The notes under the pieces were generated by a model. The model saw only the letters and a program-made list of their open reading frames with translations. It ran no database searches and was not told the origin of the DNA. A DNA stretch of 64,000 nucleotides from Phytohabitans houttuyneae (GTDB lineage Bacteria > Actinomycetota > Actinomycetes > Mycobacteriales > Micromonosporaceae), in NCBI RefSeq assembly GCF_011764425.1, contig NZ_BLPF01000001.1:62001-126000 (forward strand), read 5' to 3'. Shown piece after piece: positions 7,192 to 28,566 of this stretch. Within the stretch, counting starts at the first letter, position 1. The number at the start of each line of letters is the position of its first letter. Position numbers and translations under genes: made by a program.

Positions 7192-8567
7192 GCCACCGCC
7201 AACAGGTTGCCCTCGCGGATGCTCATGGCCGGGCGGCCCTGTGCCATGCGGGCCTCGGCCTGCGCGGCGTTGAACGCCGGCGCCTGCGCGATGGCCGCGG
7301 AGTACACGGCCGCCGTGCGGGCCGCGATCGAAGCCCAGCCGTACCGCTCGTGCACCATCGCGCGGGCGCGCTTGGCCATCGTGCGGGCCTGGTCGGCGTC
7401 GGACAGCAGCGAGCCGACCGCGTCGGCCAGCGCGTCCGGGTCCTTGGCCGGGAAGGTGATGCCGTTGAAGCCGGGCTGCACGAACTCGGCCAGCCCACCG
7501 GTCGAGGCGACCGCGAGCGGCGCACCGGCCGCCGCGCCCTCAAGCGCGACCATGCCGAACGGCTCGTAGATGCTCGGCACCGCGAAGCAGTCGGAGGCGG
7601 CGATCAGTGCCGGCAGGTCGGTGCCGCCCAGGAACCCCGGGAAGGTCACCGTCTGGCTGAGGCCGTGGCGGTGGATGTCGGCCTCCAGCTCCGGCTTGTA
7701 CGGCCCGTCGCCGGCGATCACCAGGCGCAGGCCGGGGTGCCGGTCACGGAGCTTGGGCAGGCTGGCGATGAGGTCCTGCACGCCCTTCTCGTACACGAGG
7801 CGGCCGGCGAACGTGAGCAGCGGACCGTCACCGGCGAACCGCCGGCGGGCGGACTCGACCGCGTCCGTGGGCACCTGCCAGCGGTCGGTCTCCACCCCGT
7901 TCGCGACCACGTCGAGGCGCTCGGTCGGCAGGTCGAACAGGCGGTTGACCTCCCACTTCATGTACTCCGAGCAGACGATGACGCGGGCCGCCTCCTGGCC
8001 GAGCCACCACTCGACGGAGTGGATGGCCTTGTTCATCTCCTCGGGCAGCCAGCCCTGGTGCCGGCCCGCCTCGGTGGCGTGGATGGTCGCCACGAGCGGC
8101 AGGTCCAGGTGCTCCTTGAGGGTCATCGCGGTGTGCGTGACCAGCCAGTCGTGGGCGTGGATCACGTCGTACTCGCCGGACTCCGCGGCACGCAGCGCGG
8201 CCCGGGTCAGCGTGTGGTTGAACGCCATCGTCCAGGCCAGCAGCGAGGGCGTGGCCAGCGGGAAGACCGGCGGGTCCTCGGGAGCGCGGACGATCCGCAC
8301 GCCCTCGGAGTACTCCTCCAGCGGGGCGCCGGGAGCGTGGCGGGTGACGACCGTGACCTCGTGGCCGGCGGCGGCCAGGGTGGTCGAGAGGTGGTGCACG
8401 TGCCGCCCCAGGCCACCCACCAGGACCGGCGGGTACTCCCAGGAGAGCATCAGGATGCGGCGCCGGCCGTCGGGAGCGCCGCCACGGTGGCTCGGAGTCT
8501 GCGGGAAAGTCGGGGCGGTCGGGGAGGGACGGTAGGCGCCGTCGGTGGGGTCGACCCGCAGGGTCAC
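7188..8567 (-). CDS. GT4 glycosyltransferase, glycogen synthase/GlgM-like
   Basis: 459 residues with a GT-B fold. A disordered N-terminal 35 residues lead into [20 protein letters not shown] (glycine-rich donor loop), then [23 protein letters not shown] and the [15 protein letters not shown]-terminal signature of retaining GT4 enzymes. This family includes ADP-glucose-dependent alpha-glucan and maltose-1-phosphate synthases, and translational coupling to glgB supports an alpha-glucan role. Donor and acceptor cannot be assigned from the sequence. It opens a minus-strand run of five genes that continues through treZ to the left end of the window. Confidence 0.8.
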
Positions 8568-8992
8568 ACTCTTCTCCTTCTACGCGAAACAGGCAGGTGG
8601 GTACGCCAGCCGGCGCCTGTGGCGGCAGTGCGTGCGTGAAAGTAAGTCATTGGCCGAGCGGCCACGTATAGGAAAAGCCATCCGTGTTTCGCCCGCATTC
8701 CAGGGAGGTGTAAAGGTGAGGGACGACACGCCCGATGTGCCCCTTACCTGCCAGTAGCGTGTCCCAGCCCACCAGCCCACGTCACAACGCGGCCGGGGCA
8801 GCGCCAAACGGCCTCCGGCAAGCCCGAAGGAATGCACCGCTCGCCTGGTGGAGCGCGGGCGGGACGGAAGACACGCGTGTGACGGGGGTCGCCCTTGATG
8901 TGGGCGGGGTGACATGACAGCATCACCTGAAATCAAACTGAACAGTTTGGTTTGTTTGGCGGGCCCGACCCGGGCCCGCGCAACGGGGGCAC
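8568..8992. other. Divergent intergenic region between glucan genes and the TetR operon
   Basis: 425 bp without a convincing ORF. It must hold the promoter of the leftward glucan genes and of the rightward TetR operon. The only clear structure is the palindrome at 8930-8953, listed separately. I do not see a riboswitch-like or tRNA-like fold by eye. Confidence 0.6.
8930..8953. promoter_or_regulatory. Palindromic operator candidate upstream of tetR
   Basis: Two 11-bp arms separated by AA: AAATCAAACTG and CAGTTTGGTTT, matching at 10 of 11 positions. It is locally AT-rich in an otherwise GC-rich region and ends 40 bp before the TetR start. TetR repressors usually autoregulate through such a site, so this probably controls the whole operon (inference). 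Confidence 0.6.
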
Positions 8993-9619
8993 ATGGGGGG
9001 TGTCGTGGAGCTGGACTCGCGGCGGGCCCAGGCGAAGCGGGAGCAGATCCGCCAGGGCGCCCTCGCCGCGTTCCTCGAGTCCGGCGTGTCCGGCACGAGC
9101 ATGGACCACGTCGCGGCCTGTGCGGGCGTCTCCAAGCAGACGCTGTACGTGTACTTCCGCAGCAAAGAAGACCTGCTCGTCGACGTGCTGGGCAGCATCG
9201 TCGCGTCCCTCGACGAGCGAGCGCCCTTGCTCGCGGACCGCACCGTCACCGATCTGGAGCACCTGCGGGAGGTGCTCTCCGAGGTGGCCCGGGTGATGGT
9301 CACCCACCTGATGAGCGACGACAACCTGGCCCTCTTCCGCATCTTCATCGCGGAGATGGCGACCACACCGGGGCTGCTGGCGATCTGGAGGGAAACCGTG
9401 CCGGCCCGCTTCCTGGCCCGCGTGGAGGCCGTACTGGAGCGTGCCCGCGGAGCCGGGGTGATCCGCGACGTCGACCTCGACCTCGCCACCCGGCTCTTCA
9501 TCGGCCCGATGATGACCTTCGTCTTTCTCGATGGGCTGGCCCGTCCGGGTGAGGTCCTCGTTCCGAATCGCAAGCGGCTCGACGAGGTGGTCGAGCTCTA
9601 CCTGCGCGCCGTAACTTGA
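8993..9619 (+). CDS. TetR family transcriptional regulator
   Basis: 208 residues. The N-terminal HTH (SGVSGTSMDHVAACAGVSKQ, then TLYVYFRSKEDLL) is the standard TetR domain. The C-terminal half is an all-helical ligand domain with the pattern of the AcrR-type C domain. The stop is 21 bp before the start of the ferritin-like gene, so it is probably co-transcribed with it and with the following lipid-type genes. An acyl-CoA or fatty-acid ligand would be in keeping with the operon content (inference). Confidence 0.92.
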   Translation: MGGVVELDSRRAQAKREQIRQGALAAFLESGVSGTSMDHVAACAGVSKQTLYVYFRSKEDLLVDVLGSIVASLDERAPLLADRTVTDLEHLREVLSEVARVMVTHLMSDDNLALFRIFIAEMATTPGLLAIWRETVPARFLARVEAVLERARGAGVIRDVDLDLATRLFIGPMMTFVFLDGLARPGEVLVPNRKRLDEVVELYLRAVT

Positions 9620-9639
9620 GCCCCCGGAGGCCGGCCGAC

Positions 9640-10445
9640 ATGTCCTTTGACCTGGACCACTACAAACAGACCGCCAAGGCGGTCGAGGTTGACGACATCG
9701 ACTTCGATGACTTTCGTGACAAGCCGCTGAGCGCCGAGGCCATCCGCTGCCTGCACTACATGACGGACGTGGAGACGCACACGGTCTGCTACCTGCGCGA
9801 CCTGCTGGTCACCCCCTCGCACCAGAACCCCCGGATCACCGCGTTCCTGACGATGTGGAACTTCGAGGAGTACTGGCACGGCGACGTGATCGACCGGGTC
9901 CTCGCGGTGCACGCCGAGATCAACGGGCTGCCGCGGCACCGCTCGGTGCGGTTGGCACAGGGGTTCCGCGGAAACGTGATCGCACCGATCACCCAATGCC
10001 TCACCGCGGCCGTTTTCGGGGAGGACTTCATCGCCACGCACATGACGTGGGGCGCGGTCAACGAGTGGTCGGCGCACGCCGCCTACGGCAGGTTGATCGA
10101 GCTTGAGCAGCATGCGACGCTGACGAAGATTCTGCAGCGCATCCAGCAACAGGAGAGCCGACACTTGGCGTTCTACATGTCCGAGGCCCGGGAGCGGCTG
10201 GAAAAGAGCCGAAAGGCACAGCGGATCACCCGCTTCGCGCTTCGGAAGTTCTGGGCCCCGGTCGGCTCGACCATCACGCCGAAGGCCGAGACGCGCTTCG
10301 TCCTCAACCACCTGCTCGGCGGCGAAGGGGCAACAAGATGGTGCAGATGCTCGACTCCAAGGTCGACAAGCTTCCCGGCCAGCAGGGCCTGAGCCTGGTT
10401 TCCAAGGCCGTGCAGGCGTTCGGCGTCCGAGTGGCCACAGCGTGA
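9640..10445 (+). CDS. Ferritin-like diiron protein (acyl-ACP desaturase/oxygenase-like), one apparent frameshift
   Basis: 268 residues once corrected. The helical bundle carries paired metal motifs: an Asp/Glu-rich first helix (DVETHTVCYL), FEEYWHGDV (ExxH type), then EWSAHAAYGR and QQQESRHLAFY (ExxRH type), the arrangement of non-haem diiron carboxylate enzymes. ATG 9640 has GGAGG nine bases upstream. The frame breaks at GGGG 10327-10330; with one added G it continues as NKMVQMLDSKVDKLPGQQG to a TGA at 10443-10445, overlapping the next gene's GTG. The neighbouring acyl reductase suggests an acyl chain substrate, by desaturation or hydroxylation, but this is inference. It could instead be an N-oxygenase or a non-catalytic ferritin-like protein. 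Confidence 0.75.
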
Positions 10446-12705
10446 CGGACCACCTGCGGGGCAGCACATCCTCCTGACCGGCGGCACCGGGTTCCTCGGT
10501 CAGGCGCTGCTGGAAAAGCTGCTCTCGAGCTACCCGGAGACGCGGGTGACGCTGCTGATCCGGCGGCGCGGCAGCTCGTCCGGCACCGATCGCCTCAACA
10601 CGCTGCTCAAGCGGCCGGTCTTCGCCAAGTGGCGGCAGGCGGTCGGCGCGGAGGCGGCCGCGGCCATCGTCGCGGAGCGGGTGAGCGTGGTCGACGCCGA
10701 GCTGGGCAGCACCGACGTGCGCCTGCCGGCCGACATCGACGCGGTGATCCACGCGGCATCGACGGTCTCGTTCGACCCGCCGATCGACGACGCCTTCCGC
10801 ACCAACGTGCAGGGCGTGATCGACCTCTACGAGGCGGTCAAGGCCAGCGGCGCCACGCCGCACGTCGTGCACGTCTCCACGGCGTACGTGGCGGGAGCGC
10901 GCAAGGGTGTCGTGCCCGAGCGGTCGCTGGACCACAACGCCGACTGGCGGATCGAGCTGTCCTCGGCGCGGGCCGCGCGCGAGAGCGTGGAGTGGGACTC
11001 GCGCCGCCCCGCCGTGCTCAAGCGGGCCATCGCCGACGCCCGCAAGGACCACGGCAAGTCAGGGCCGCAGAGCACCGCGACCGCCGCCGAGCAGCGGCGG
11101 GTCGAGTGGGTGGAGAAACAGCTCGTCGAGTACGGGCGGCTGCGCGCGCAGAGCGTCGGCTGGCCGGACGTCTACACGTTCACCAAGGCGCTCGGCGAGC
11201 GGGTGGCCGAGGAGACGCTGACCGGCGCGATGCCGCTGTCGGTGGTACGCCCGGCGATCGTGGAGAGCGCGCTGCGCTACCCGTTCCCCGGCTGGATCGA
11301 CGGCTTCAAGATGGCCGACCCGCTGATCCTCGCGTTCGGCCGGGGCATCCTGCCGGAGTTTCCCGGCCTGCCGGACGGCGTCCTGGACGTGATCCCGGTC
11401 GACATCGTGGTCAACGCGACCCTCGCGGTGGCCGCCGCTCCCCCGCCGGTCGAGACGCCGGCGTACTACCACGTCGGCTCCGGCGCCCGTAACCCGCTCA
11501 CGTTCCGGGCCATGTACGACAGCGTCAAGGAGTACTTCACCGACCACCCGATGCCCGACGGCGGACGCGGCCAGATCAAGGTGCCGGAGTGGACGTTCCC
11601 CGGCGCGCGGCGGGTCGAGCGGCAGCTGCGCACCGGCGAGAAGGTGCTGTCGGTGGCGCAGAAGGCGCTGCTGTCCGCGCCGGCCAACAAGCGCACCCGG
11701 CGGTGGCAGGACGACCTGACCCGGCAGCAGGACCAGCTCGACTTCCTGCGCAAGTACGCCGACCTGTACGGCGTCTACACCGAGGCCGAGGTCATCTACA
11801 CCGACAACAAGCTGCTGGCGCTGCACCGCGCGCTGCCCGGCGACCGGGTCGAGGCGCACGGCTTCGACGCGGCGGCCATCGACTGGCACCACTACCTGCA
11901 GGAGGTGCACTACCCGGCGATCACCGCCACGATGCGCAAGGCGACGGTCGGGCGGCGCACCAGCAGCAACGCGCTGCCGGCGCTGCGCCAGTCGCCAAAC
12001 GGCGGCGACGTGGTGGCGGTGTTCGACCTGGAGGGCACGCTTGTCGCGTCCAACGTGATCGAGACGTACCTGCTGGCCCGCCTCTGCGACCTGCCCCGCT
12101 CCGGCTGGCCGGCCGAGGTCGCCGACCTGGTCCGCAAGCTCCCGCGCTACCTGTCGGCGGAGCGGCGCGACCGGGGCGAGTTCCTGCGCACGTTCATGCG
12201 GCGGTACGCCGGTGCCGACGAGGCGGGCCTGGCCCGCATCGTGCACGAGCGGCTCGGCGACGCGCTGCTGCGCCGCTCCCACCCCGAGGCCATCCGCCAG
12301 GTGCGCAAGCACCGCTCGGCCGGGCACCGCACGGTCCTGATCACGGGGACGGTCGACGTGCTCGTCCAGCCGATCGCCGGCCTCTTCGACGAGGTGGTGG
12401 CGAGCCGGCTGCACATGCGCGACGGCCGCTACTCCGGCTTCCTGGAGGCGCCGCCGCTGGTCGGCGAGGCCCGCGCGGCGTGGCTGCGGCGGTACGCGGA
12501 GAACTCCGGCGCCGACCTGCCGGCCAGCTACGCGTACGGCGACAGCTACTCGGACCGCCCGCTGCTGGAGGCGGTCGGCCACCCGGTCGCGGTCAACCCC
12601 GACCCGCACCTGTACCGGCACGCCAAGTCCCGCCGCTGGGCGGTGGCGCAGTGGAAGGCGTACACCCTGCCGGCCAGCGACGCCTTCCTGGAGACGGTGC
12701 CATGA
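10442..12705 (+). CDS. Fatty acyl reductase (SDR/NAD_binding_4) fused to HAD-IB hydrolase, one apparent frameshift
   Basis: 754 residues once corrected. The first ~480 residues form a Rossmann reductase of the acyl-CoA reductase/Male-sterility type: HILLTGGTGFLGQALLEKLL, a VIHAAS(T)VSFD segment, VHVSTAYVAG and YTFTKALGE (YxxxK). The last ~220 residues are a HAD-IB phosphatase-like domain: VFDLEGTLVASN, LITGTVDVL and YGDSYSDRPLLEAVG. The likely start GTG 10442 overlaps the previous stop, but its frame needs one extra base in GGGG 10458-10461 to reach the Rossmann loop. The reductase part would reduce a thioester to aldehyde or alcohol with NAD(P)H. The HAD part may dephosphorylate a lipid or alcohol phosphate (inference). 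Confidence 0.8.
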
Positions 12706-12757
12706 AACACCCCGTGAACCCGCTCCGCTCCGCGTCGCGCTCTCCCGGGGGAAAGCC

Positions 12758-13951
12758 GTGAACCTCAACCTCGAGTACCACCGCTCGCCGATCCGCTACA
12801 TCACCGCGCGGACCGCGACCGGCACCATCGCGACGGGCCGCGCGGCCGGCTGGTGGGCGGCGAACATGTCGCCCGTCCGGCTCGTCAACCGCCCCGAGCC
12901 GCGCCTGCCCGGCCCCGGTTGGACGCGGGTCAAGCCGCTGCTGTCCGGCATCTGCGGCTCCGACCTGGGACTGCTGACCGGCCGCAACTCGCCGTACCTC
13001 AGCGCTTTGATCTCCTTGCCCTTCACACCGGGTCACGAGGTCGTCGGCGAGACCCTGGACGCGCTGCCCGACCTGCCGAAGGGCAGCCGCGTCGTGCTCG
13101 ACCCGGTGCTGGGCTGCGTGCCCCGCGACGTCAAGCTCTGCCCGGGCTGCGCGGCCGGCGAGCACAGCCGGTGCGACCACATCACCTCCGGGCGGGTCTC
13201 GGCGGCGCTGCAGACCGGCTTCTGCGCGGACACCGGCGGCGGCTGGAGCCGGATGTTCGTGGCGCACGCCAGCCAGCTGCACAAGGTGCCGGACGAGCTC
13301 GACGACGAGCGGGCCGTGCTCGTCGAGCCGCTGGCCACCGCGGTCCACTCGGTGCGCCGCGTGCCGATCCCGGACGGCGCGAGCGTGCTGGTCGTCGGCG
13401 CCGGCACGGTGGGGCTGTTCACCACGCTCGCGCTGCGCGAGTACACGAAGGCCGGCCCGATCTACGTGATCGCGCGCTACGGCCACCAGCGCGAGCGGGC
13501 GCGCGAGATGGGCGCCACCGAGGTGCTCTCCTCGGACCGGGCGGCGCGGGCGCTGCGCCGGGCGACGGGCGGCTTCCTGGCCCGGCCCGAGCAGGGCGCC
13601 GAGTTCCTGCTCGGCGGCACCGACATCGCCTTCGACTGCACGGCCGGCTCGGGCCTGGACACCGCGCTGCGGGTGGTCCGGGCCGGCGGTACCGTGCTGC
13701 TGTCCGGAATGCCCAACGCCAGCGTCGACCTCACGCCGGCCTGGTTCCGTGAGCTCAACATCGTCGGGGCGTACGCCTCGGGTGGCAACGACTTCCCGGA
13801 CGCGATGGCGCTCGCCAAGTCCGCGCCGCTGAACGGCTACGTCGACGCCGTGTATCCGCTGTCCCGTTGGCGGGACGCGATCGGGCACGCCAGCTCCGCG
13901 GGGCGGCTCGGCTCGATCAAGGTGGCGTTCGACCCGACCAAGGATCAATAG
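12758..13951 (+). CDS. Zinc-dependent medium-chain alcohol dehydrogenase
   Basis: 397 residues from a GTG start. It shows CGSDLGLL and GHEVVGE for the catalytic zinc, a structural-zinc cysteine cluster (LCPGCAAGEHSRC), VLVVGAGTVGLF for the dinucleotide loop and a C-terminal catalytic lobe. It follows the reductase-HAD gene by 52 bp and precedes the LarA-like gene by 13 bp, so it sits inside the operon. In context it could interconvert the aldehyde/alcohol made by the reductase, or oxidise a hydroxyacid-type intermediate. The substrate cannot be read from sequence. The long N-terminal extension before the zinc motif (about 60 residues) is slightly unusual. Confidence 0.9.
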   Translation: MNLNLEYHRSPIRYITARTATGTIATGRAAGWWAANMSPVRLVNRPEPRLPGPGWTRVKPLLSGICGSDLGLLTGRNSPYLSALISLPFTPGHEVVGETLDALPDLPKGSRVVLDPVLGCVPRDVKLCPGCAAGEHSRCDHITSGRVSAALQTGFCADTGGGWSRMFVAHASQLHKVPDELDDERAVLVEPLATAVHSVRRVPIPDGASVLVVGAGTVGLFTTLALREYTKAGPIYVIARYGHQRERAREMGATEVLSSDRAARALRRATGGFLARPEQGAEFLLGGTDIAFDCTAGSGLDTALRVVRAGGTVLLSGMPNASVDLTPAWFRELNIVGAYASGGNDFPDAMALAKSAPLNGYVDAVYPLSRWRDAIGHASSAGRLGSIKVAFDPTKDQ

Positions 13952-13964
13952 GGGGACCCTCGAT

Positions 13965-15542
13965 ATGAGTAGGCCTGGTTTCGTGCTGGAAGTCGATGAG
14001 AGGACTCCAGCGCTGCTGATGCACGAGGGCGAGGGGTTCCGCCTGGAAAAGCTGCCGCTGGGCAGCCGCGTCATCTATCCGCCGGAGTCGCTGCCGGGCA
14101 TGCGCGACGTCGACGGTGAGATCCGCCGCGCGCTGGACAACCCGCTCGGCCGCGAGCCGCTGCGGGAGCTGCTGTTCGCCGGCATGAAGCTGACGATCGT
14201 CTTCGACGACCTGTCGATCCCGCTGCCGCCGATGCGCACGCCCGACATCCGCCAGCGGGTGATCGAGCAGGTGCTGGAGCTGGCCGCGGCCAAGGGCGTC
14301 GACGACGTCGAGCTGATCGCCGGCAACGCGCTGCACCGCCGCATGACGCCGGCCGAGCTCAAGCGGACGGTCGGCGAGCGCGTCTACCGCTCCTTCTTCC
14401 CGCGCCACCTGCGCAACCACGACGCCGAGGACAAGGCCAACCTTGTCGAGATCGGACACACCAAGCACGGCGAGGTCGTCGAGATCAACCGGCGGGCGGC
14501 CGAGAGCGACCTCATCGTGTACGTCAACGTGTCGCTCACCGCGATGAGCGGCGGCCCGAAGTCGGTGTCGGTGGGGCTCGCCTCGTACCGCAGCCTCAAG
14601 CACCACCACAACGTGCACACGCTGCGGCACTCGCGCTCGTTCAACGACCCGCCGAACTCGGCCATGCACCACTCCTACGACCGCATGGCCGGCCTGCTCG
14701 GCGACAATCTCAAGATCTTCCAGATCGAGACGACGCTCAACAACGACACGTTCCCCTCGCAGGTGGGCTTCCTGAACAAGCGCGAGTGGGAGTGGACGCT
14801 CAAGGACCAGGCGGCGTACCTGGCGGTGAAGCGGGCCAACGACCTCGCCCCGCCGAAGCGGCGGCGTCAGCTGTGGCACAAGACCGCCTCGCCGTACGGC
14901 GTCACGTCGGTCACCGCGGGAGACCCGATCCAGGTGCACGAGGTGACGATGCGCAACGTGCTGCGGCAGCAGCTGACCGAAGTGGACGGTCCGGCGGACA
15001 TCGGGATCTGGGGCCTGCCGTACATCTGCCCGTACAACGTCAACTCGATCATGAACCCGATCCTGGTGATGTCGCTCGGGCTCGGCTACTTCTTCAACCT
15101 GTACCGCAACCAGCCGATCGTCCGCCCCGGCGGCGTGGCCATCTACTACCACCCGGTGCGCAACGAGTTCCACCCCGTGCACCACCCCAGCTACATCGAC
15201 TTCTTCGAAGAGGTGCTCGCCGAGACCACCGACCCGGTGGCGATCGAGACGAAGTTCGAGGAGCAGTTCGCCACCGACCCGTGGTACATCCACCTGTACC
15301 GCAACAGCTACGCCTACCACGGCGTACACCCGCTCTACATGTGGTACTGGGGCGCGCACGCGCTGGAGCACCTCGGCGACGTCATCTTCGTCGGTGGTGA
15401 CCGCAAGACCACGGCGCGCATGGGCTTCCGCTCCGCGTCCACTTTGGATGACGCGCTGGAGATGGCCCGCGAGCGGGTGGGCAGCTCGCCGACGATCAAC
15501 TACCTGCACGCCCCGCCGCTGACGATGGCGGACGTACGGTGA
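13965..15542 (+). CDS. LarA-like (DUF2088) nickel-pincer-nucleotide protein, divergent
   Basis: 525 residues, about 100 longer than lactate racemase LarA. The DUF2088 core is visible: an FDDLSIP segment where LarA has its Asp-x-Thr-Arg-Pro loop, NALHRRMTPAELK (His124, matching LarA His108), and SGGPKSVSVG (Lys199) followed by HHHN, whose third His (215) lies 16 residues after the Lys. That is exactly the spacing of LarA Lys184 and His200, which bind the nickel-pincer cofactor. The second catalytic His of LarA (His174, ten residues before the Lys) appears to be Val189, and the Arg of the Thr-Arg-Pro loop is missing. These are by-eye alignments. It probably binds the cofactor but may not be a lactate racemase. 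larE, larB and larC are in this window. Confidence 0.8.
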   Translation: MSRPGFVLEVDERTPALLMHEGEGFRLEKLPLGSRVIYPPESLPGMRDVDGEIRRALDNPLGREPLRELLFAGMKLTIVFDDLSIPLPPMRTPDIRQRVIEQVLELAAAKGVDDVELIAGNALHRRMTPAELKRTVGERVYRSFFPRHLRNHDAEDKANLVEIGHTKHGEVVEINRRAAESDLIVYVNVSLTAMSGGPKSVSVGLASYRSLKHHHNVHTLRHSRSFNDPPNSAMHHSYDRMAGLLGDNLKIFQIETTLNNDTFPSQVGFLNKREWEWTLKDQAAYLAVKRANDLAPPKRRRQLWHKTASPYGVTSVTAGDPIQVHEVTMRNVLRQQLTEVDGPADIGIWGLPYICPYNVNSIMNPILVMSLGLGYFFNLYRNQPIVRPGGVAIYYHPVRNEFHPVHHPSYIDFFEEVLAETTDPVAIETKFEEQFATDPWYIHLYRNSYAYHGVHPLYMWYWGAHALEHLGDVIFVGGDRKTTARMGFRSASTLDDALEMARERVGSSPTINYLHAPPLTMADVR

Positions 15543-15555
15543 AGGGGTTCTCTTC

Positions 15556-16470
15556 ATGGGCCTGATGAAGGACATCCGCACCCTCACCGGCGGCCGTGAC
15601 TGGCGCGGCCGCTCGCGCACCCCGCGGTCCGCGGTCGCGCACGAGCCGCCGGAGCCGCCGCGCGAGTTCCCGACCGGCTGGGCGCGCACCCAGGCGGCGC
15701 AGACCGCGCGTCGGGCGCTGCAGCGCGGGGTGCTGACCCCGCTGACGTGGAGCCAGACCCGCCCGGAGATCCAGGGACGCGACCGGCTGGCCGCGCTCAA
15801 GGGGCCGGTGGTGTTCGTGGCCAACCACAGCAGCCACCTGGACACCCCGCTGATCCTCGGCTCGCTCCCCCGCCACCTGGGCGAACGCGTCGCGGTCGGC
15901 GCGGCGGCCGACTACTTCTTCGACGCCCGCCTGCGCGCGGTCGTGACGGCCCTGGTCTTCAACGCCTTCCCGGTCGAACGCCACCGCTCGCGCCGCCTGC
16001 GCAGCCTGGCGCCGATGCTGCTGGCCCGCGGGTGGAGCCTGCTGCTCTTCCCGGAGGGCACCCGCAGCGAGGACGGCTGGATGTCGCCGCTCCGGCTGGG
16101 CGCGGCACACCTCTGCGTGACCCAGGGCGTGCCGATGGTCCCGATCGGCCTGCGCGGCACGTACGCGGCGATGCCCCGCGGCCGCAACTGGCCCATCCCG
16201 GGCCGCGCCCGCGTGGTCGTCCGGTACGGCACGCCGCTGCACCCGCAGGCCGGCGAGGGCGCCCGCGCGTTCAACGCCCGCATGGCCGACTCGATCGCCC
16301 AGCTGTGGGCCGAGGAGGAGCTCGGCTGGTACGGCTCGCTGCGCGCCCAGGCCAAGGGCGAGCTCGCGCTGCCGAGCGGCCAGCAGTATCCCGCCGGCTC
16401 GTGGCGCCGCACCTGGGAGTCGACGCGCCCCCTCGGCGACCGCGCGCCACGGCCCGCCTGGGACGACTGA
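15556..16470 (+). CDS. PlsC-like 1-acyl-glycerol-3-phosphate acyltransferase family protein
   Basis: 304 residues with the acyltransferase motifs FVANHSSHLDTP (NHx4D), FPVERH and LLFPEGTRS, and the later VPMVPIGLRG block. The N-terminal 80 residues are basic and without a clear membrane span. It lies 13 bp after the LarA-like gene and ends the operon. In the family it transfers an acyl chain from acyl-CoA/ACP to a lysophospholipid or similar alcohol at the membrane. Here it could esterify the alcohol generated upstream (inference). A repeat of the 3'-associated family begins 30 bp after its stop. Confidence 0.88.
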   Translation: MGLMKDIRTLTGGRDWRGRSRTPRSAVAHEPPEPPREFPTGWARTQAAQTARRALQRGVLTPLTWSQTRPEIQGRDRLAALKGPVVFVANHSSHLDTPLILGSLPRHLGERVAVGAAADYFFDARLRAVVTALVFNAFPVERHRSRRLRSLAPMLLARGWSLLLFPEGTRSEDGWMSPLRLGAAHLCVTQGVPMVPIGLRGTYAAMPRGRNWPIPGRARVVVRYGTPLHPQAGEGARAFNARMADSIAQLWAEEELGWYGSLRAQAKGELALPSGQQYPAGSWRRTWESTRPLGDRAPRPAWDD

Positions 16471-17125
16471 AGGACCCAAAACCCAAGAGCCGGATCCGGG
16501 CTACCGCGACGTCCGCGGTGGTCCGGACCGCTGCTCCCGCGGCCTCACCCTCCGCCCCGGTCAACCACCCAGCCCACGCCGCCGGCCACGACCCCGTCGA
16601 TCCGCCCCATCGTGGTACCTGCCCGCCGCACGAACCATGGCCGACGCCGCTGGCAGCATGATCACTATGCGGAGCGGCCGCGCGACGGCATGCCAACGCT
16701 CCGACGGTGTCAGAGAGCGGCGACAGGCCAGGAGGCAGATCGAGATCTTGGTGAGTTGGCGTTGCCATTTCGCGCTAACTTGCCAAGATCTGCGCGAGCT
16801 GGCCCCGCGCGCTGTGTCCAACCCGCGCCCGCCCACGGATCCCTTGACCGGCGTCACCAGCAGGCGCCACCAGCCTATCGTGGTACCTGGCTGCACCTTT
16901 AGGCGCAGTAAGTACCACGACCACCAGGTCGCCTCCCCGATCAAGGAACCTACGACCGTGCCCGCGGAGCGGGACGGGCGGACGGGCGCCGGGCGGGATG
17001 GGCTTGGCGGGCGGACCCGGCAGCGGAGGTCGGGGAACTCGGCGAGCCCTGGCGAGCCGCCGACCTCCGCGGTGCCCGCGGGAGCATGCGGTCCGCAGCT
17101 GGCGCGGACGCGGGCAGATATGTCC
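16471..17125. repeat. Repeat-rich intergenic region (families A, B, C, D)
   Basis: 655 bp with no supported gene. It contains, in order, a copy of repeat family A at about 16500-16556, a 49-bp imperfect palindrome of family B at 16743-16791 (AGATCTTGG...CCAAGATCT), a family D segment at about 16845-16925 (CCTTGACCGGC followed by a TCGTGGTAC/GTACCACGA hairpin), and a family C copy at about 17020-17100. The same four motifs recur elsewhere in the window in intergenic DNA only. Confidence 0.7.
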
Positions 17126-25828: not shown

Positions 25829-26658
25829 TCAGGCGCGGCGCCACCGCTCCGGGTCGGCGAGCAGCTCGTTCATCGACCCGGAGCGGAACGGCTCCACCGC
25901 CACCTCGGCCCCGTCGAAGCCGGCCGCCCGGATCGCCGCGTGCAGGGCGGCGTCATGGCGCGCGGCATCCACGAGGTGCGGGTCGACTTCGAGACGCGCG
26001 GTCGCGCCGAGGTCCCGTACCCGGACATTATGGACGTGATGGGCGGCGAGCAAGCGGCGCGCGGCGGCCTCCGCGCGCTCCACCCGGGCCAGCCGGGCCG
26101 GTGTGATCGAAACGCCGTAGGCGATGCGGCTGGACAGGCACGCGGCGGCGGGCTTGTCCGCGGTCCGCAGGTCCCAGGCCCGCGCGACGGCGCGGACCGC
26201 CGCCTTGTCCAAACCAAGATCAGCCAATGGGGTACGCGCGCCGCGCTCGGCCGCCGCCCGGATGCCGGGCCGGAAGCCCGCGGCGATGTCGGAGGCGTTC
26301 GTGCCGGTGGCCACCTCGTCGAACCCATGCTCCGCCGCCACCCGCCGCGCGGTGTCCAGCAGCGTGCTCTTGCAGAAGTAGCAGCGGCGCGGCCCGTTTT
26401 CCCGGTAGCCCGCCACGTCCATCTCGCGCGTCTCCACCGCGTAGTGCGTGACGCCCAGCCGCGCGCAGAACTCTGCCGCCTCGGCCACCTCCGCCCCGGC
26501 ACCGCGGGCGAGACCGCCGTGACGGCCGCCACGCCGCCGGGGCCCAGCGCACGCGCCGCGGCGGCCAGGACCACGCTGGAGTCGACGCCGCCGGAGAACG
26601 CCACCAGCGTCCGGCCGTATCCTGCGATTTCGGTGACCAGGCGGTCGGAGGGCAGCAT
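25829..26658 (-). CDS. larE: LarE, ATP-dependent sulfur transferase of nickel-pincer nucleotide synthesis, one apparent frameshift
   Basis: 276 residues once corrected, the family-typical length. The PP-loop motif VAFSGGVDSSVVL lies near residue 20, followed by RRCYFCKSTLLDT (CxxC), ATGTNASDIAAGFRPG and KPAAACLSSRIAYG (third Cys). LarE adenylates the dicarboxylate made by LarB and inserts sulfur. Three conserved cysteines point to the variant reported to use an iron-sulfur cluster rather than sacrificing a protein cysteine (inference from motif). The frame breaks at CCCC 26494-26497 between VTAVSPAVPG and AEVAEAAEFC. Its ATG at 26658 overlaps the ATG of larB on the other strand. Confidence 0.88.
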
Positions 26659-27352
26659 GACTGAACGGTACCCAACGGGGAGCGGAGCGGAGATCGCGGA
26701 TCTCGGTTTCGCCCGCCTCGACCTGCAGCGCGCCGCGCGCACCGGCGACCCGGAGGTGGTCTTCGGCCGGGGCAAGACGCCGTCGCAGGTGGTCGCGGCG
26801 CTGGCCGCGCTGCACGAGGCGCACCCCGAGGGAGCCGTGCTCGCCACCCGCCTCGACGATGACGCGCTCGCCCTGTGCCGGGCCGAGCTGCCCGACGCCG
26901 ACCTGGACGAGGTGGCCCGGACGGCGGTGCTGGGCAAGCCGCGCACCTCCCAGGGCCGGGTCGCGGTCGTCGGCGCCGGCACGGCCGACCTGCCGGTCGT
27001 CCGCGAGTGCGTCACGACGGTACGCGTCTTCGGCGCCGACCCCGACCTGATCGTCGACGTGGGCGTCGCCGGCTTGCACCGCCTGCTCGCCCAGCGCGAC
27101 CGCATCGACTCGGCCGACGTGGTCGTCGCCGTGGCCGGCATGGAGGCCGCTCTCCCCTCGGTGATCGGCGGCCTGACGGGCGCGCCACTGATCGCGGTGC
27201 CCACGAGCGTCGGGTACGGCTGGCACCTGGACGGCCTCACCGCCTGGCTGGCAACGCTCAACAGCTGCGCGCCCGGCGTGCTGACCGTCAACGTCGACAA
27301 CGGCTTCGGCGCCGGCGTGGCCGCCGCCCGAATCGCCCGGCGCGCCCGGTGA
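26657..27352 (+). CDS. larB: LarB, pyridinium carboxylase/hydrolase of nickel-pincer nucleotide synthesis
   Basis: 231 residues. It starts with the short conserved LGFARLDLQRAAR and PEVVFGRGKTPSQVV segment, continues into a PurE-like domain (VAVVGAGTADLPVVREC, VVVAVAGMEAALPSVIGGL, VPTSVGYG) and closes with NVDNGFGAGVAAA. LarB carboxylates nicotinic acid adenine dinucleotide and hydrolyses its phosphoanhydride, the first step of the cofactor pathway. The stop overlaps the GTG of larC (GTGA), so translation is coupled. The start codon at 26657 overlaps that of larE on the opposite strand. Confidence 0.93.
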   Translation: MTERYPTGSGAEIADLGFARLDLQRAARTGDPEVVFGRGKTPSQVVAALAALHEAHPEGAVLATRLDDDALALCRAELPDADLDEVARTAVLGKPRTSQGRVAVVGAGTADLPVVRECVTTVRVFGADPDLIVDVGVAGLHRLLAQRDRIDSADVVVAVAGMEAALPSVIGGLTGAPLIAVPTSVGYGWHLDGLTAWLATLNSCAPGVLTVNVDNGFGAGVAAARIARRAR

Positions 27353-28566
27353 GCGCCGCACGTGTCTTGTGGGTCGACGCCTCCAACGGCGCGGCCGGCG
27401 ACATGCTGCTTGCCGCGCTGCTCGACGCGGGCGCCTCGCTCGACACCGTGCGCGCCGGCCTGGCGCGCCTCGGCGTGCCGGTGGCCGTCGACGTGACCGC
27501 GGTACGCCGCCACGGCTTCCGCGCCGCGCACGTGCGGGTGGACGCGCCGGAGACGGATGTCCACCGTGGACTGTCCGATGTGCTCGCCGTGCTCTCCCGC
27601 CTGGATGGGCCGGCACACGACTTCGCGGCCGGCGTCTTCACCCGGCTCGCCGAGGCGGAGGCGCGCGTACACGGCTCCACGGTGGACGAGGTGCACTTCC
27701 ACGAGGTCGGCGCGCTCGACGCGATCGCCGACGTGGCGGGCTGCGCGCTGGCCCTGCACGACCTGGGCCTGCTGGACGCCCCGTCCCGCGTGGTGTCGCC
27801 GGTCGCGGTCGGCTCCGGCACGGTACGCACCGCGCACGGCCCGCTGCCCGTACCCGCGCCCGCCGTCGTCGAGCTCCTGACCGCCGCCGGCGCCCCGCTG
27901 GCCGCGCACACCGCCACGATGGAGCTGTGCACGCCCACCGGCGCCGCGCTGCTGACGGCGCTGGCCACGGCGTGGGGCCCGCCGCCGGCGATGACCCCGT
28001 CGGCGGTGGGCGTGGGCGCCGGTACCGCCGACCCGCCCGGCCACGCCAACGTGCTCCGCGTGCTCGCCGGCACCACCGCCGCACAGGCCGCCGCGGACTG
28101 GCAGGAGGGCGAGCTCTTCCAGGTCGAGGCCACAGTGGACGACCTCGACCCGCGGGTGTGGCCGGACCTGCTGGAGGAGCTGCGGTCGGTGGGCGCCGCG
28201 GACGCCTGGTGCGTACCCGCCCTGATGCGCAAGGGCCGCCCCGGCCAGGTGCTGACCGTGCTCGTGGACGCCGCCCGCCTGGACCTCGCCTGCCGCGTGG
28301 TCTACACCTGGACGACGACGCTCGGCGTCCGCGTCCACCCGGTGCGCCGCCGCGCCCTGCGCCGCGACTCGGTGACGGTCGAGGTGACCGGCGGCGCGGT
28401 GCGGGTCAAGCGCGCCTTCCTGGGCGCGGAGGTGGTGACGGCGCAGCCCGAGTACGACGACGCGCTGGCCGCCGCACGCACCGCCGGCGTGCCGGTCACG
28501 GCGGTCATCGACGCGGCCCGCGCCGCCGCTTCCCCGCAAGCCCCCGAGCCTGGCCCACGACACTGA
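27349..28566 (+). CDS. larC: LarC, nickel insertase of nickel-pincer nucleotide synthesis
   Basis: 405 residues from a GTG start overlapping the larB stop. Visible blocks are VLWVDASNGAAGDMLLAALL, EVHFHEVGALDAIADV (metal-rich segment), ELCTPTGAALL, SAVGVGAGTADPPGHANVLR and a C-terminal LFQVEATVDDLDPRVW with MRKGRPGQVL. LarC is a CTP-dependent cyclometallase that inserts nickel into the sulfurated nucleotide. In Lactiplantibacillus LarC is split and joined by ribosomal frameshifting; here it is one uninterrupted frame. With larE and larB it completes the cofactor pathway. Confidence 0.93.
   Translation: MSAARVLWVDASNGAAGDMLLAALLDAGASLDTVRAGLARLGVPVAVDVTAVRRHGFRAAHVRVDAPETDVHRGLSDVLAVLSRLDGPAHDFAAGVFTRLAEAEARVHGSTVDEVHFHEVGALDAIADVAGCALALHDLGLLDAPSRVVSPVAVGSGTVRTAHGPLPVPAPAVVELLTAAGAPLAAHTATMELCTPTGAALLTALATAWGPPPAMTPSAVGVGAGTADPPGHANVLRVLAGTTAAQAAADWQEGELFQVEATVDDLDPRVWPDLLEELRSVGAADAWCVPALMRKGRPGQVLTVLVDAARLDLACRVVYTWTTTLGVRVHPVRRRALRRDSVTVEVTGGAVRVKRAFLGAEVVTAQPEYDDALAAARTAGVPVTAVIDAARAAASPQAPEPGPRH

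What the first reader, a model, noticed from the sequence alone, without database searches (positions are those of the whole stretch)
8993..16470. Undescribed lipid-type operon built around a LarA-like nickel-pincer protein
Six genes in one direction (TetR, diiron ferritin-like, acyl reductase-HAD fusion, zinc dehydrogenase, LarA-like, PlsC) with gaps of 0-52 bp. Each family is known, but I know of no described pathway combining a nickel-pincer enzyme with an acyl reductase and an acyltransferase. A possible scheme: the diiron enzyme oxidises an acyl chain, the reductase makes an aldehyde or alcohol, the HAD domain removes a phosphate, the dehydrogenase and LarA-like protein adjust a hydroxyl centre, and PlsC esterifies the product.
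Basis: partly seen in the sequence, partly recalled or inferred. Interest (0 to 1): 0.88.

Follow-up and report, generated by a model that had tools for sequence, protein, structure and literature searches.

The report
Nickel-pincer lipid-alcohol operon of actinobacteria
This is a conserved block of genes in many actinobacteria that joins a rare nickel-cofactor protein to enzymes for making fatty alcohols and attaching fatty acids, and it points to a still unknown lipid and to an unusual use of the nickel cofactor.

Summary
The six genes are present and operon-like in this Phytohabitans genome. They reduce to a four-gene core: fatty acyl reductase-HAD fusion, polyol-type zinc dehydrogenase, LarA homologue, PlsC acyltransferase. 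The core stands in order on one strand in 68 of 80 named actinobacterial loci; 9 of the other 12 are cut by contig ends. TetR and the diiron gene are accessory. The LarA homologue belongs to the catalogued family LarAH14, whose Frankia member showed none of seven tested activities. In 103 distinct copies the cofactor lysine, nickel histidine and first catalytic histidine are invariant, while the second catalytic histidine is N, T or S and the substrate arginine is L, I, V or C. It therefore probably binds the nickel-pincer cofactor but is not an ordinary alpha-hydroxyacid racemase. Best reading: a TetR-controlled operon for a fatty-alcohol-derived, acylated lipid, with LarAH14 doing one-sided hydride chemistry on a neutral alcohol. 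The product is unknown and no activity was shown. Boldest open reading: ether-lipid formation by transient oxidation.

The parts
8934..8949 (.). Palindrome CAAACTGAACAGTTTG, likely TetR operator
   Evidence: Perfect 7-2-7 repeat; exact in five of six Phytohabitans species upstream of tetR, varied in the sixth; one site in the 11.3 Mb genome for CAAACTGNNCAGTTTG; 0.01 expected in the window with up to 2 mismatches
8993..9619 (+). TetR-family regulator (accessory)
   Evidence: Pfam TetR_N, TetR_C_7; adjacent in the six Phytohabitans genomes
9640..10445 (+). Ferritin-like diiron protein (accessory), frame break near 10330
   Evidence: Invariant E45, E77xxH80, E142, E172xxH175 in 7 aligned homologues; FA_desaturase_2 at E up to 1 in 7 of 7, best 1.7e-4
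10442..12705 (+). Alcohol-forming-type fatty acyl reductase fused to HAD-IB phosphatase (core)
   Evidence: PDB 7eoz fatty acyl-CoA reductase E 9e-52 over residues 23-520; HAD-IB TIGR01490 115 bits, cut-off 98.3; motifs kept; frame break near the start
12758..13951 (+). Zinc dehydrogenase of the sorbitol/ketose-reductase type (core)
   Evidence: 1e3j ketose reductase E 1e-24; zinc-ligand positions kept in 96-97 of 102 loci, with 2 departures at the structural cysteines and the rest unaligned
13965..15542 (+). LarAH14 nickel-pincer protein (core)
   Evidence: NF052592 894.6 bits, cut-off 740; residues
15556..16470 (+). PlsC-type acyltransferase (core)
   Evidence: Acyltransferase, 5kym PlsC E 7e-14; H91, D96, E167, R170 in 98 of 98, G168 in 97 of 98
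25868..26646 (-). LarE, NPN sulfur insertase, in two frames
   Evidence: TIGR00268 matches on G000:C1:87868-88494 and 88479-88646; 206.6 bits for the longer part
26717..27352 (+). LarB, NPN biosynthesis
   Evidence: NF033503 253.5 bits, cut-off 175
27352..28566 (+). LarC, NPN nickel insertion
   Evidence: TIGR00299 186.9 bits (cut-off 90) and NF052512 120.9 bits (cut-off 50)

Best explanation
A TetR-controlled operon makes a fatty-alcohol-derived, acylated lipid with the help of a nickel-pincer enzyme. SHOWN by sequence: gene order, conservation, linkage to the NPN genes larB/C/E in part of the relatives, intact catalytic motifs of the reductase, HAD, dehydrogenase and acyltransferase, intact NPN-holding residues of LarAH14, and loss of its second catalytic His and carboxylate Arg. 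INFERRED: the FAR domain reduces an acyl thioester to a fatty alcohol (or aldehyde); the HAD domain removes a phosphate from the intermediate; LarAH14 takes and gives back a hydride on one face of a secondary alcohol in a neutral, greasy substrate (so no racemisation), working with the polyol-type dehydrogenase that handles the matching ketone; PlsC adds an acyl chain; where present, the diiron protein desaturates or hydroxylates the chain. The product is unknown.
For: Four-gene core in order in 68 of 80 named loci, 19 of 26 phylum-wide loci and 12 of 13 close-relative loci; these three sets overlap in part. A FAR-HAD orthologue (564-1741 bits; two in two pieces, one cut by a contig end) in 14 of 14 genomes with LarAH14; in the 47 others the best match is 96 bits. 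A lar gene in the fetched DNA of 25 of 106 loci, in several different arrangements; 15 of the 44 named loci with at least 20 kb fetched. Same-strand larE-larB-larC directly before FAR-HAD in Wenjunlia, S. aculeolatus and two further Streptomyces. LarC in 76 of 86 LarAH14 genomes against 168 of 310 others; strong LarB in 76 of 86. H108, K184, H200 equivalents invariant in 103 distinct copies; R75 position L/I/V/C and H174 position N/T/S in all 103. FAR matches a solved fatty acyl-CoA reductase over its whole length. One genome that lost the NPN residues (G047) has no LarC and only weak LarE-like matches (LarB not searched there).
Against: No activity or structure: the Frankia LarAH14 was inactive in seven assays (PMC7583248), though none used lipid alcohols. 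In 81 of 106 loci no lar gene lies in the fetched DNA. Seven of 86 LarAH14 genomes are over cut-off but lack LarC, strong LarB and strong LarE; 6.3 are expected to miss a given locus by incompleteness, but three of the seven are at least 95% complete. LarC is also in 14 of 47 relatives without LarAH14, and this genome has a second LarA-type protein, so the NPN genes are not tied to LarAH14 alone. G047 keeps the operon after losing the NPN residues. In 5 of 26 phylum loci PlsC or ADH was not detected. Fatty alcohol as product is inferred from homology only. The H174 assignment rests on gapped alignments; no structure model could be obtained.
Confidence: 0.55

Rival explanations
1. LarAH14 is a one-way racemase or epimerase of an alpha-hydroxyacid (for example a 2-hydroxy fatty acid or sugar acid) and the operon makes or recycles a hydroxy-acid lipid, as the first reader and the LarA family name suggest.
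For: The LarA superfamily members characterised in PMC11770544 act on 2-hydroxy acids (passages); PMC12611868 proposes one-way racemisation for single-His homologues (section 2.5); NCBIfam names the family hydroxyacid isomerase.
Against: The position of R75, which binds the substrate carboxylate, is L/I/V/C in 103 of 103 distinct copies and the H174 position is never His; in residues 350-390 no position has Lys in more than 39 of 106 loci, so K298 has no conserved counterpart; Frankia LarAH14 inactive in seven assays.
Confidence: 0.2
2. LarAH14 is a non-enzymatic or NPN-free scaffold or binding protein in a lipid operon; the cofactor link is a relic.
For: G047 keeps the gene after losing the H, K and H residues; seven LarAH14 genomes lack LarC, strong LarB and strong LarE.
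Against: 103 of 103 distinct copies keep K184, H200 and H108 equivalents; physical linkage of larB/C/E in different arrangements; the number of NPN-less genomes fits incompleteness (7 against 6.3 expected).
Confidence: 0.1
3. The operon is catabolic: it breaks down an environmental lipid, with PlsC re-esterifying released chains.
For: A long-chain acyl-CoA ligase-like gene lies in the fetched DNA of 8 loci, five of them Nocardioides, which would suit either direction; TetR control is common for both directions (recalled).
Against: Fatty acyl reductase and PlsC run in the biosynthetic direction in known systems (recalled). Only ten neighbour clusters were annotated, so a missing beta-oxidation or lipase gene is not excluded.
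Confidence: 0.12

Closest known systems
LarAH14 of Frankia (Desguin 2020 group 14; NCBIfam NF052592)
   Same: Same family model, 894.6 bits against cut-off 740; Frankia-type loci L073, L074, L090, L098 carry FAR-HAD, ADH, LarA and PlsC (FAR-HAD only as a partial hit in L073)
   Different: The Frankia protein was assayed alone and showed none of seven activities. The operon, its lipid enzymes and larEBC inside it were not in the sections and passages I read; the supplementary gene-context table could not be read.
Single-histidine LarA homologues LarASp (PDB 9q2u, 9q3k) and LarABw (9q3j), group 17
   Same: H108, K184, H200 and the NPN-ribose Asp kept, second His replaced; 9q2u is the best PDB match, E 7e-36
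   Different: They sit by glycolysis and sugar genes and have Lys at the R75 position; LarAH14 has L/I/V/C there and stands in a lipid gene set
Lactate and malate racemases LarA, Mar2
   Same: Lar_N domain, NPN-binding Lys and His
   Different: LarAH14 lacks H174 and R75, used in alpha-hydroxyacid racemisation
AGPS-type ether-lipid route (fatty alcohol, GNPAT, AGPS; described in PMC9702350, passages)
   Same: A fatty-alcohol maker, a PlsC-fold acyltransferase, a ketose-type reductase and a phosphatase have possible counterparts in the operon
   Different: No AGPS-like domain among the six genes; no ether lipid shown; comparison by analogy only

Membership tests
LarAH14/15/16 (NF052592) | Score over curated cut-off | tested here: met
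   894.6 bits, cut-off 740
NPN-dependent LarA proteins | NPN-linking Lys184, Ni His200, catalytic His108 | tested here: met
   K199, H215, H124 in window; invariant in 103 distinct copies; L035 (G047), outside that set, has lost them
NPN-dependent LarA proteins | LarB, LarC, LarE in the genome | tested here: met
   In the window itself; LarE has a frame break
NPN-dependent LarA proteins | NPN and nickel bound by the protein | not testable with these tools
   Needs protein
LarA alpha-hydroxyacid racemases | Second catalytic His174 | tested here: not met
   N/T/S in 103 of 103 distinct copies; Ser in the window
LarA alpha-hydroxyacid racemases | Arg75 for substrate carboxylate | tested here: not met
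   L/I/V/C in 103 of 103 distinct copies; the profile alignment is gapped here, the phmmer alignment is not
LarA alpha-hydroxyacid racemases | Racemase activity | not testable with these tools
   Frankia LarAH14 negative in 7 assays (PMC7583248)
Alcohol-forming fatty acyl reductase | Rossmann GxxGxxG, YxxxK, full-length FAR match | tested here: met
   Sterile domain only below its cut-off
HAD-IB phosphatase | DxD/E, GDSxxD motifs | tested here: met
   D545 in 97 of 98 (1 unaligned), D 58 or E 39 at 547, D717 and D721 98 of 98
Acyl-ACP desaturase | Diiron ligand set | tested here: met
Acyl-ACP desaturase | Pfam FA_desaturase_2 over cut-off | tested here: not met
   19.8 bits, cut-off 22.7
AGPS-dependent ether-lipid pathway | AGPS (FAD) in the operon | tested here: not met
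   No such domain among the six genes; rest of genome not searched

The most novel reading that the evidence does not exclude
LarAH14 is an ether-lipid-forming enzyme that borrows a hydride: NPN transiently oxidises C2-OH of a 1-acyl-glycerol phosphate to a ketone, the acyl group is exchanged for the fatty alcohol made by the FAR domain, and the hydride is returned to the same face, so one histidine is enough. PlsC, the ketose-type dehydrogenase and the HAD phosphatase finish an alkyl-acyl glycerolipid. This would be a nickel route to ether lipids that needs no AGPS, and, as far as the papers I saw say, the first NPN reaction other than stereo-inversion.
Probability: 0.06. Interest if true: 0.93.

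Novelty: new variant of a known kind. Interest (0 to 1): 0.72.

Why it matters
Single-histidine LarA homologues are an open problem: they are built to hold a nickel cofactor known for stereo-inversion but lack a residue of the standard reaction, and the papers seen report no substrate for them. This operon places one such family, widely across Actinomycetota, in a lipid context with its cofactor genes and a likely dedicated repressor site, so the substrate search shifts from hydroxyacids towards neutral lipid alcohols and can be run as ordinary gene deletion plus lipidomics.

Tried and rejected
Rejected: chance adjacency; classical racemase. Other neighbours: the two largest non-core clusters (25 and 21 loci) are opposite-strand ORFs that overlie the core genes and were taken as shadow ORFs of my simple ORF caller. 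Of the remaining clusters I had ten representatives annotated: LarB (19 loci), LarC (17), LarE (17), a TetR (12), an acyl-CoA ligase (8), and lineage-bound ones such as hisA-trpF (13) and an MFS transporter (15), mainly Kribbella, and two (8 each) mainly in Actinomadura; the other clusters were not annotated. Promoter and terminator scan of 8560-17100: 0 and 2 found against 0.2 and 2.4 in shuffles, so it neither supports nor refutes one transcript. PDB search with the diiron alignment gave no clear natural match (best natural chain E 0.02).

Literature: no paper holds both 'nickel-pincer' and 'fatty acyl', both 'lactate racemase' and 'fatty acyl-CoA reductase', or the five terms; DUF2088 gave one paper. 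Searches (1 paper; 15 listed of 73; 7 of 7; 12 listed of 86) showed nothing on this operon in the titles and abstract starts listed; two searches gave the LarA papers used. So 'not described' holds only for this open-licence library and these searches. Supplements could not be read. Papers seen: PMC7583248 (sections 5 and 8 and passages), PMC12611868 (outline and abstract, part 1 of 3 of section 4, sections 9 and 10, one data-availability passage), PMC11770544, PMC11868695 and PMC9702350 (passages); others only in listings.

Structure prediction was tried for A2 and A3: the machine was busy each time, so no model and no fold search was run. Rows dropped before counts: the 103 distinct copies come from L037-L116 and L147-L172 (106 loci, 3 duplicates), so L024-L036, among them L035 with lost residues, are not in that count. 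L030 was left out of diiron alignment A3 because its stretch held a stop. In one search six of eight LarA-type rows were used; L002 and L021 had given a wrong reading frame. L147-L172 are 26 loci chosen by me from the 86 over cut-off. LarE was searched only in the 61 relatives and in 12 chosen genomes.

Full report
Setting. The window is G000 C1:62001-126000. Contigs of its same-genus relatives G002 and G003 have the lengths and match positions of the named chromosomes of Phytohabitans suffuscus (LarA 98%) and P. flavus (96%), so the genus is Phytohabitans. The six genes of the finding are there, on one strand and close together.

Frame breaks. The diiron gene changes frame near 10330: the C-terminal part seen in a sister species (L025) continues in another frame and ends at 10445. 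FAR-HAD has its Rossmann motif upstream of its first in-frame start, so it probably starts at the GTG that overlaps the diiron stop, with a second frame break just after. LarE in the window is also split. Other relatives show splits elsewhere (diiron in L024; LarE in G001 and G002; FAR-HAD in G004 and G047). Assembly errors in high-GC DNA are the simplest reading; real mutation is not excluded.

Conservation. A protein search of 61 genomes (the window's own and 60 relatives) found a LarA match in 17; 14 of these hold an orthologue at 58-100% identity, the other 3 only matches of 31-36%. Around the orthologues the order FAR-HAD, ADH, LarA, PlsC is kept in 12 of 13 fetched loci, the thirteenth being cut by a contig end. 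Of these 80, 68 have all four genes in order on one strand, 9 are cut by a contig end, and in 3 one gene was not detected (L061 PlsC; L068 and L069 ADH). They include Micromonosporaceae, Actinomadura, Streptomyces, Frankia, Kribbella, Nocardioides, Nitriliruptorales and an Acidimicrobiales MAG. In a draw of 396 Actinomycetota genomes 86 are over the LarAH14 cut-off; of 26 such loci fetched, 19 have the full core, 2 are cut, and in 5 one gene was not detected (L147 PlsC, L163 ADH, L167-L169 PlsC). The three sets overlap in part: L147, L148 and L160 carry the same LarA as L061, L063 and L062. Fourteen weaker homologues (24-42% identity) do not have the core. A FAR-HAD orthologue (564-1741 bits) occurs in 14 of 14 relatives with LarAH14; in the 47 without it the best match is 96 bits, to the HAD part. 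Median gaps, measured from aligned ends and so slightly too large, are 33.5-60.5 bases.

Accessory genes. TetR and the diiron gene stand beside the core in the six Phytohabitans genomes. A diiron relative also lies near the operon in L043, L045, L057, three Actinomadura loci and L030, that is in a minority of loci. In Wenjunlia (L057) and S. aculeolatus (L043) the order on one strand is TetR, then after 0.2-0.4 kb diiron, LarE, LarB, LarC, FAR-HAD, ADH, LarA, PlsC. Their TetR has a different C-terminal family from the window's. A palindrome at 8934-8949 upstream of tetR is exact in five of six Phytohabitans species and varied in the sixth, and occurs once in the genome. This suggests a dedicated regulator; binding is untested.

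Cofactor link. NPN is made by LarB, LarC and LarE. All three lie in the window at 25868-28566. In a clustering of called ORFs from 116 loci, larB (19 loci), larC (17) and larE (17) were the largest extra clusters after two clusters of opposite-strand ORFs that overlie the core genes and were set aside. With protein queries at least one lar gene is in the fetched DNA in 25 of 106 loci (23 of 80 named; 15 of the 44 named with at least 20 kb), in different positions and orientations, which suggests repeated linkage; in 81 it is not near. LarC is in 76 of 86 LarAH14 genomes and 168 of 310 others (Fisher p 1.6e-9, not corrected for kinship); strong LarB is in 76 of 86 and both in 73. In the 61 relatives LarC is in 12 of 14 with LarAH14 and 14 of 47 without. 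Of the ten LarAH14 genomes lacking LarC, three have strong LarB and strong LarE, and seven have none of the three. Incompleteness alone predicts 6.3 genomes missing a given locus, but three of the seven are at least 95% complete. A second, distant LarA-type protein exists in this genome (L002), so LarAH14 need not be the only NPN user.

Active site. Against PDB 5huq the N-domain aligns so that D72 is D82, R75 is I85, H108 is H124, K184 is K199 and H200 is H215 (residue roles from PMC7583248 and PMC12611868). Profile alignment with LarA-type homologues puts position 190 at H174. In 103 distinct copies H124, K199 and H215 are invariant; position 85 is L 75, I 25, V 2, C 1; position 190 is N 89, T 12, S 2. 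So the cofactor-holding set is intact and the racemase set is not. PMC12611868 states that groups 14 and 15 lack H174. In G047 the H, K and H are all changed, and the genome shows no LarC and only weak LarE-like matches; LarB was not searched there, the genome is 86% complete, and its FAR-HAD is split, so the operon may be decaying. It is one case.

Partner enzymes. FAR-HAD residues 23-520 match a solved fatty acyl-CoA reductase end to end, and the HAD part matches HAD-IB phosphatases. ADH is nearest to ketose reductase and sorbitol dehydrogenase. PlsC is nearest to a solved 1-acyl-glycerol-phosphate acyltransferase. Motifs are kept in nearly all aligned loci. The diiron protein has a full ligand set and only weak similarity to named families.

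How it most likely works. The parts point to a lipid with a fatty-alcohol-derived chain and an added acyl chain. A LarA protein without its second acid-base and without its carboxylate arginine, but with the tested cofactor residues, suggests one-sided hydride transfer on a neutral alcohol; the neighbouring polyol-type dehydrogenase suggests a secondary alcohol of glycerol type. Returning the hydride to the same face would be transient oxidation, as in S-adenosylhomocysteine hydrolase (recalled). The ether-lipid version is the boldest form of this and has no direct evidence.

Novelty. The protein family was known; the parts of the papers that I read do not describe the operon, and my searches found no description. 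The published gene-context table was not readable, so some neighbours may already be listed there.

Noticed in passing
window 9616-10445, 10393-10546, 26479-26494: Frame breaks in the diiron gene, at the start of FAR-HAD and in larE; some relatives show breaks at other places. Probably assembly errors.
   Followed up: partly
L035 (G047:C69:2500-22000): An operon copy whose LarA lost the H, K and H of the NPN site, in a genome without LarC and with only weak LarE-like matches; FAR-HAD there is split.
   Followed up: partly
G239, G270, G142, G164, G218, G320, G351: LarAH14 over cut-off but no LarC, no strong LarB and no strong LarE; three of these genomes are at least 95% complete.
   Followed up: partly
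L002 (G000:C1:1799061-1802558): A second LarA-type protein in the same genome with HESVGFSGGDK and PDGTR motifs, unlike LarAH14.
   Followed up: no
L173-L179, L183, L185, L186: Homologues at 32-42% identity that share the NPN residues, the hydrophobic R75 position and the lack of H174, but lie outside any such operon (L184 has Ser for the Lys); L180-L182 have lost the NPN residues.
   Followed up: no
window 8959-8979: A 9-3-9 G+C palindrome between the operator and tetR, reported only for this species among the six upstream regions compared.
   Followed up: no
L068, L069, L163, L167-L169: Operon versions in which the zinc dehydrogenase (first three) or the PlsC next to LarA (last three) was not detected.
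   Followed up: partly
L103, L105, L108, L109, L110, L153, L159, L169: A long-chain acyl-CoA ligase-like gene in the fetched DNA around the operon, five of the eight loci being Nocardioides.
   Followed up: no
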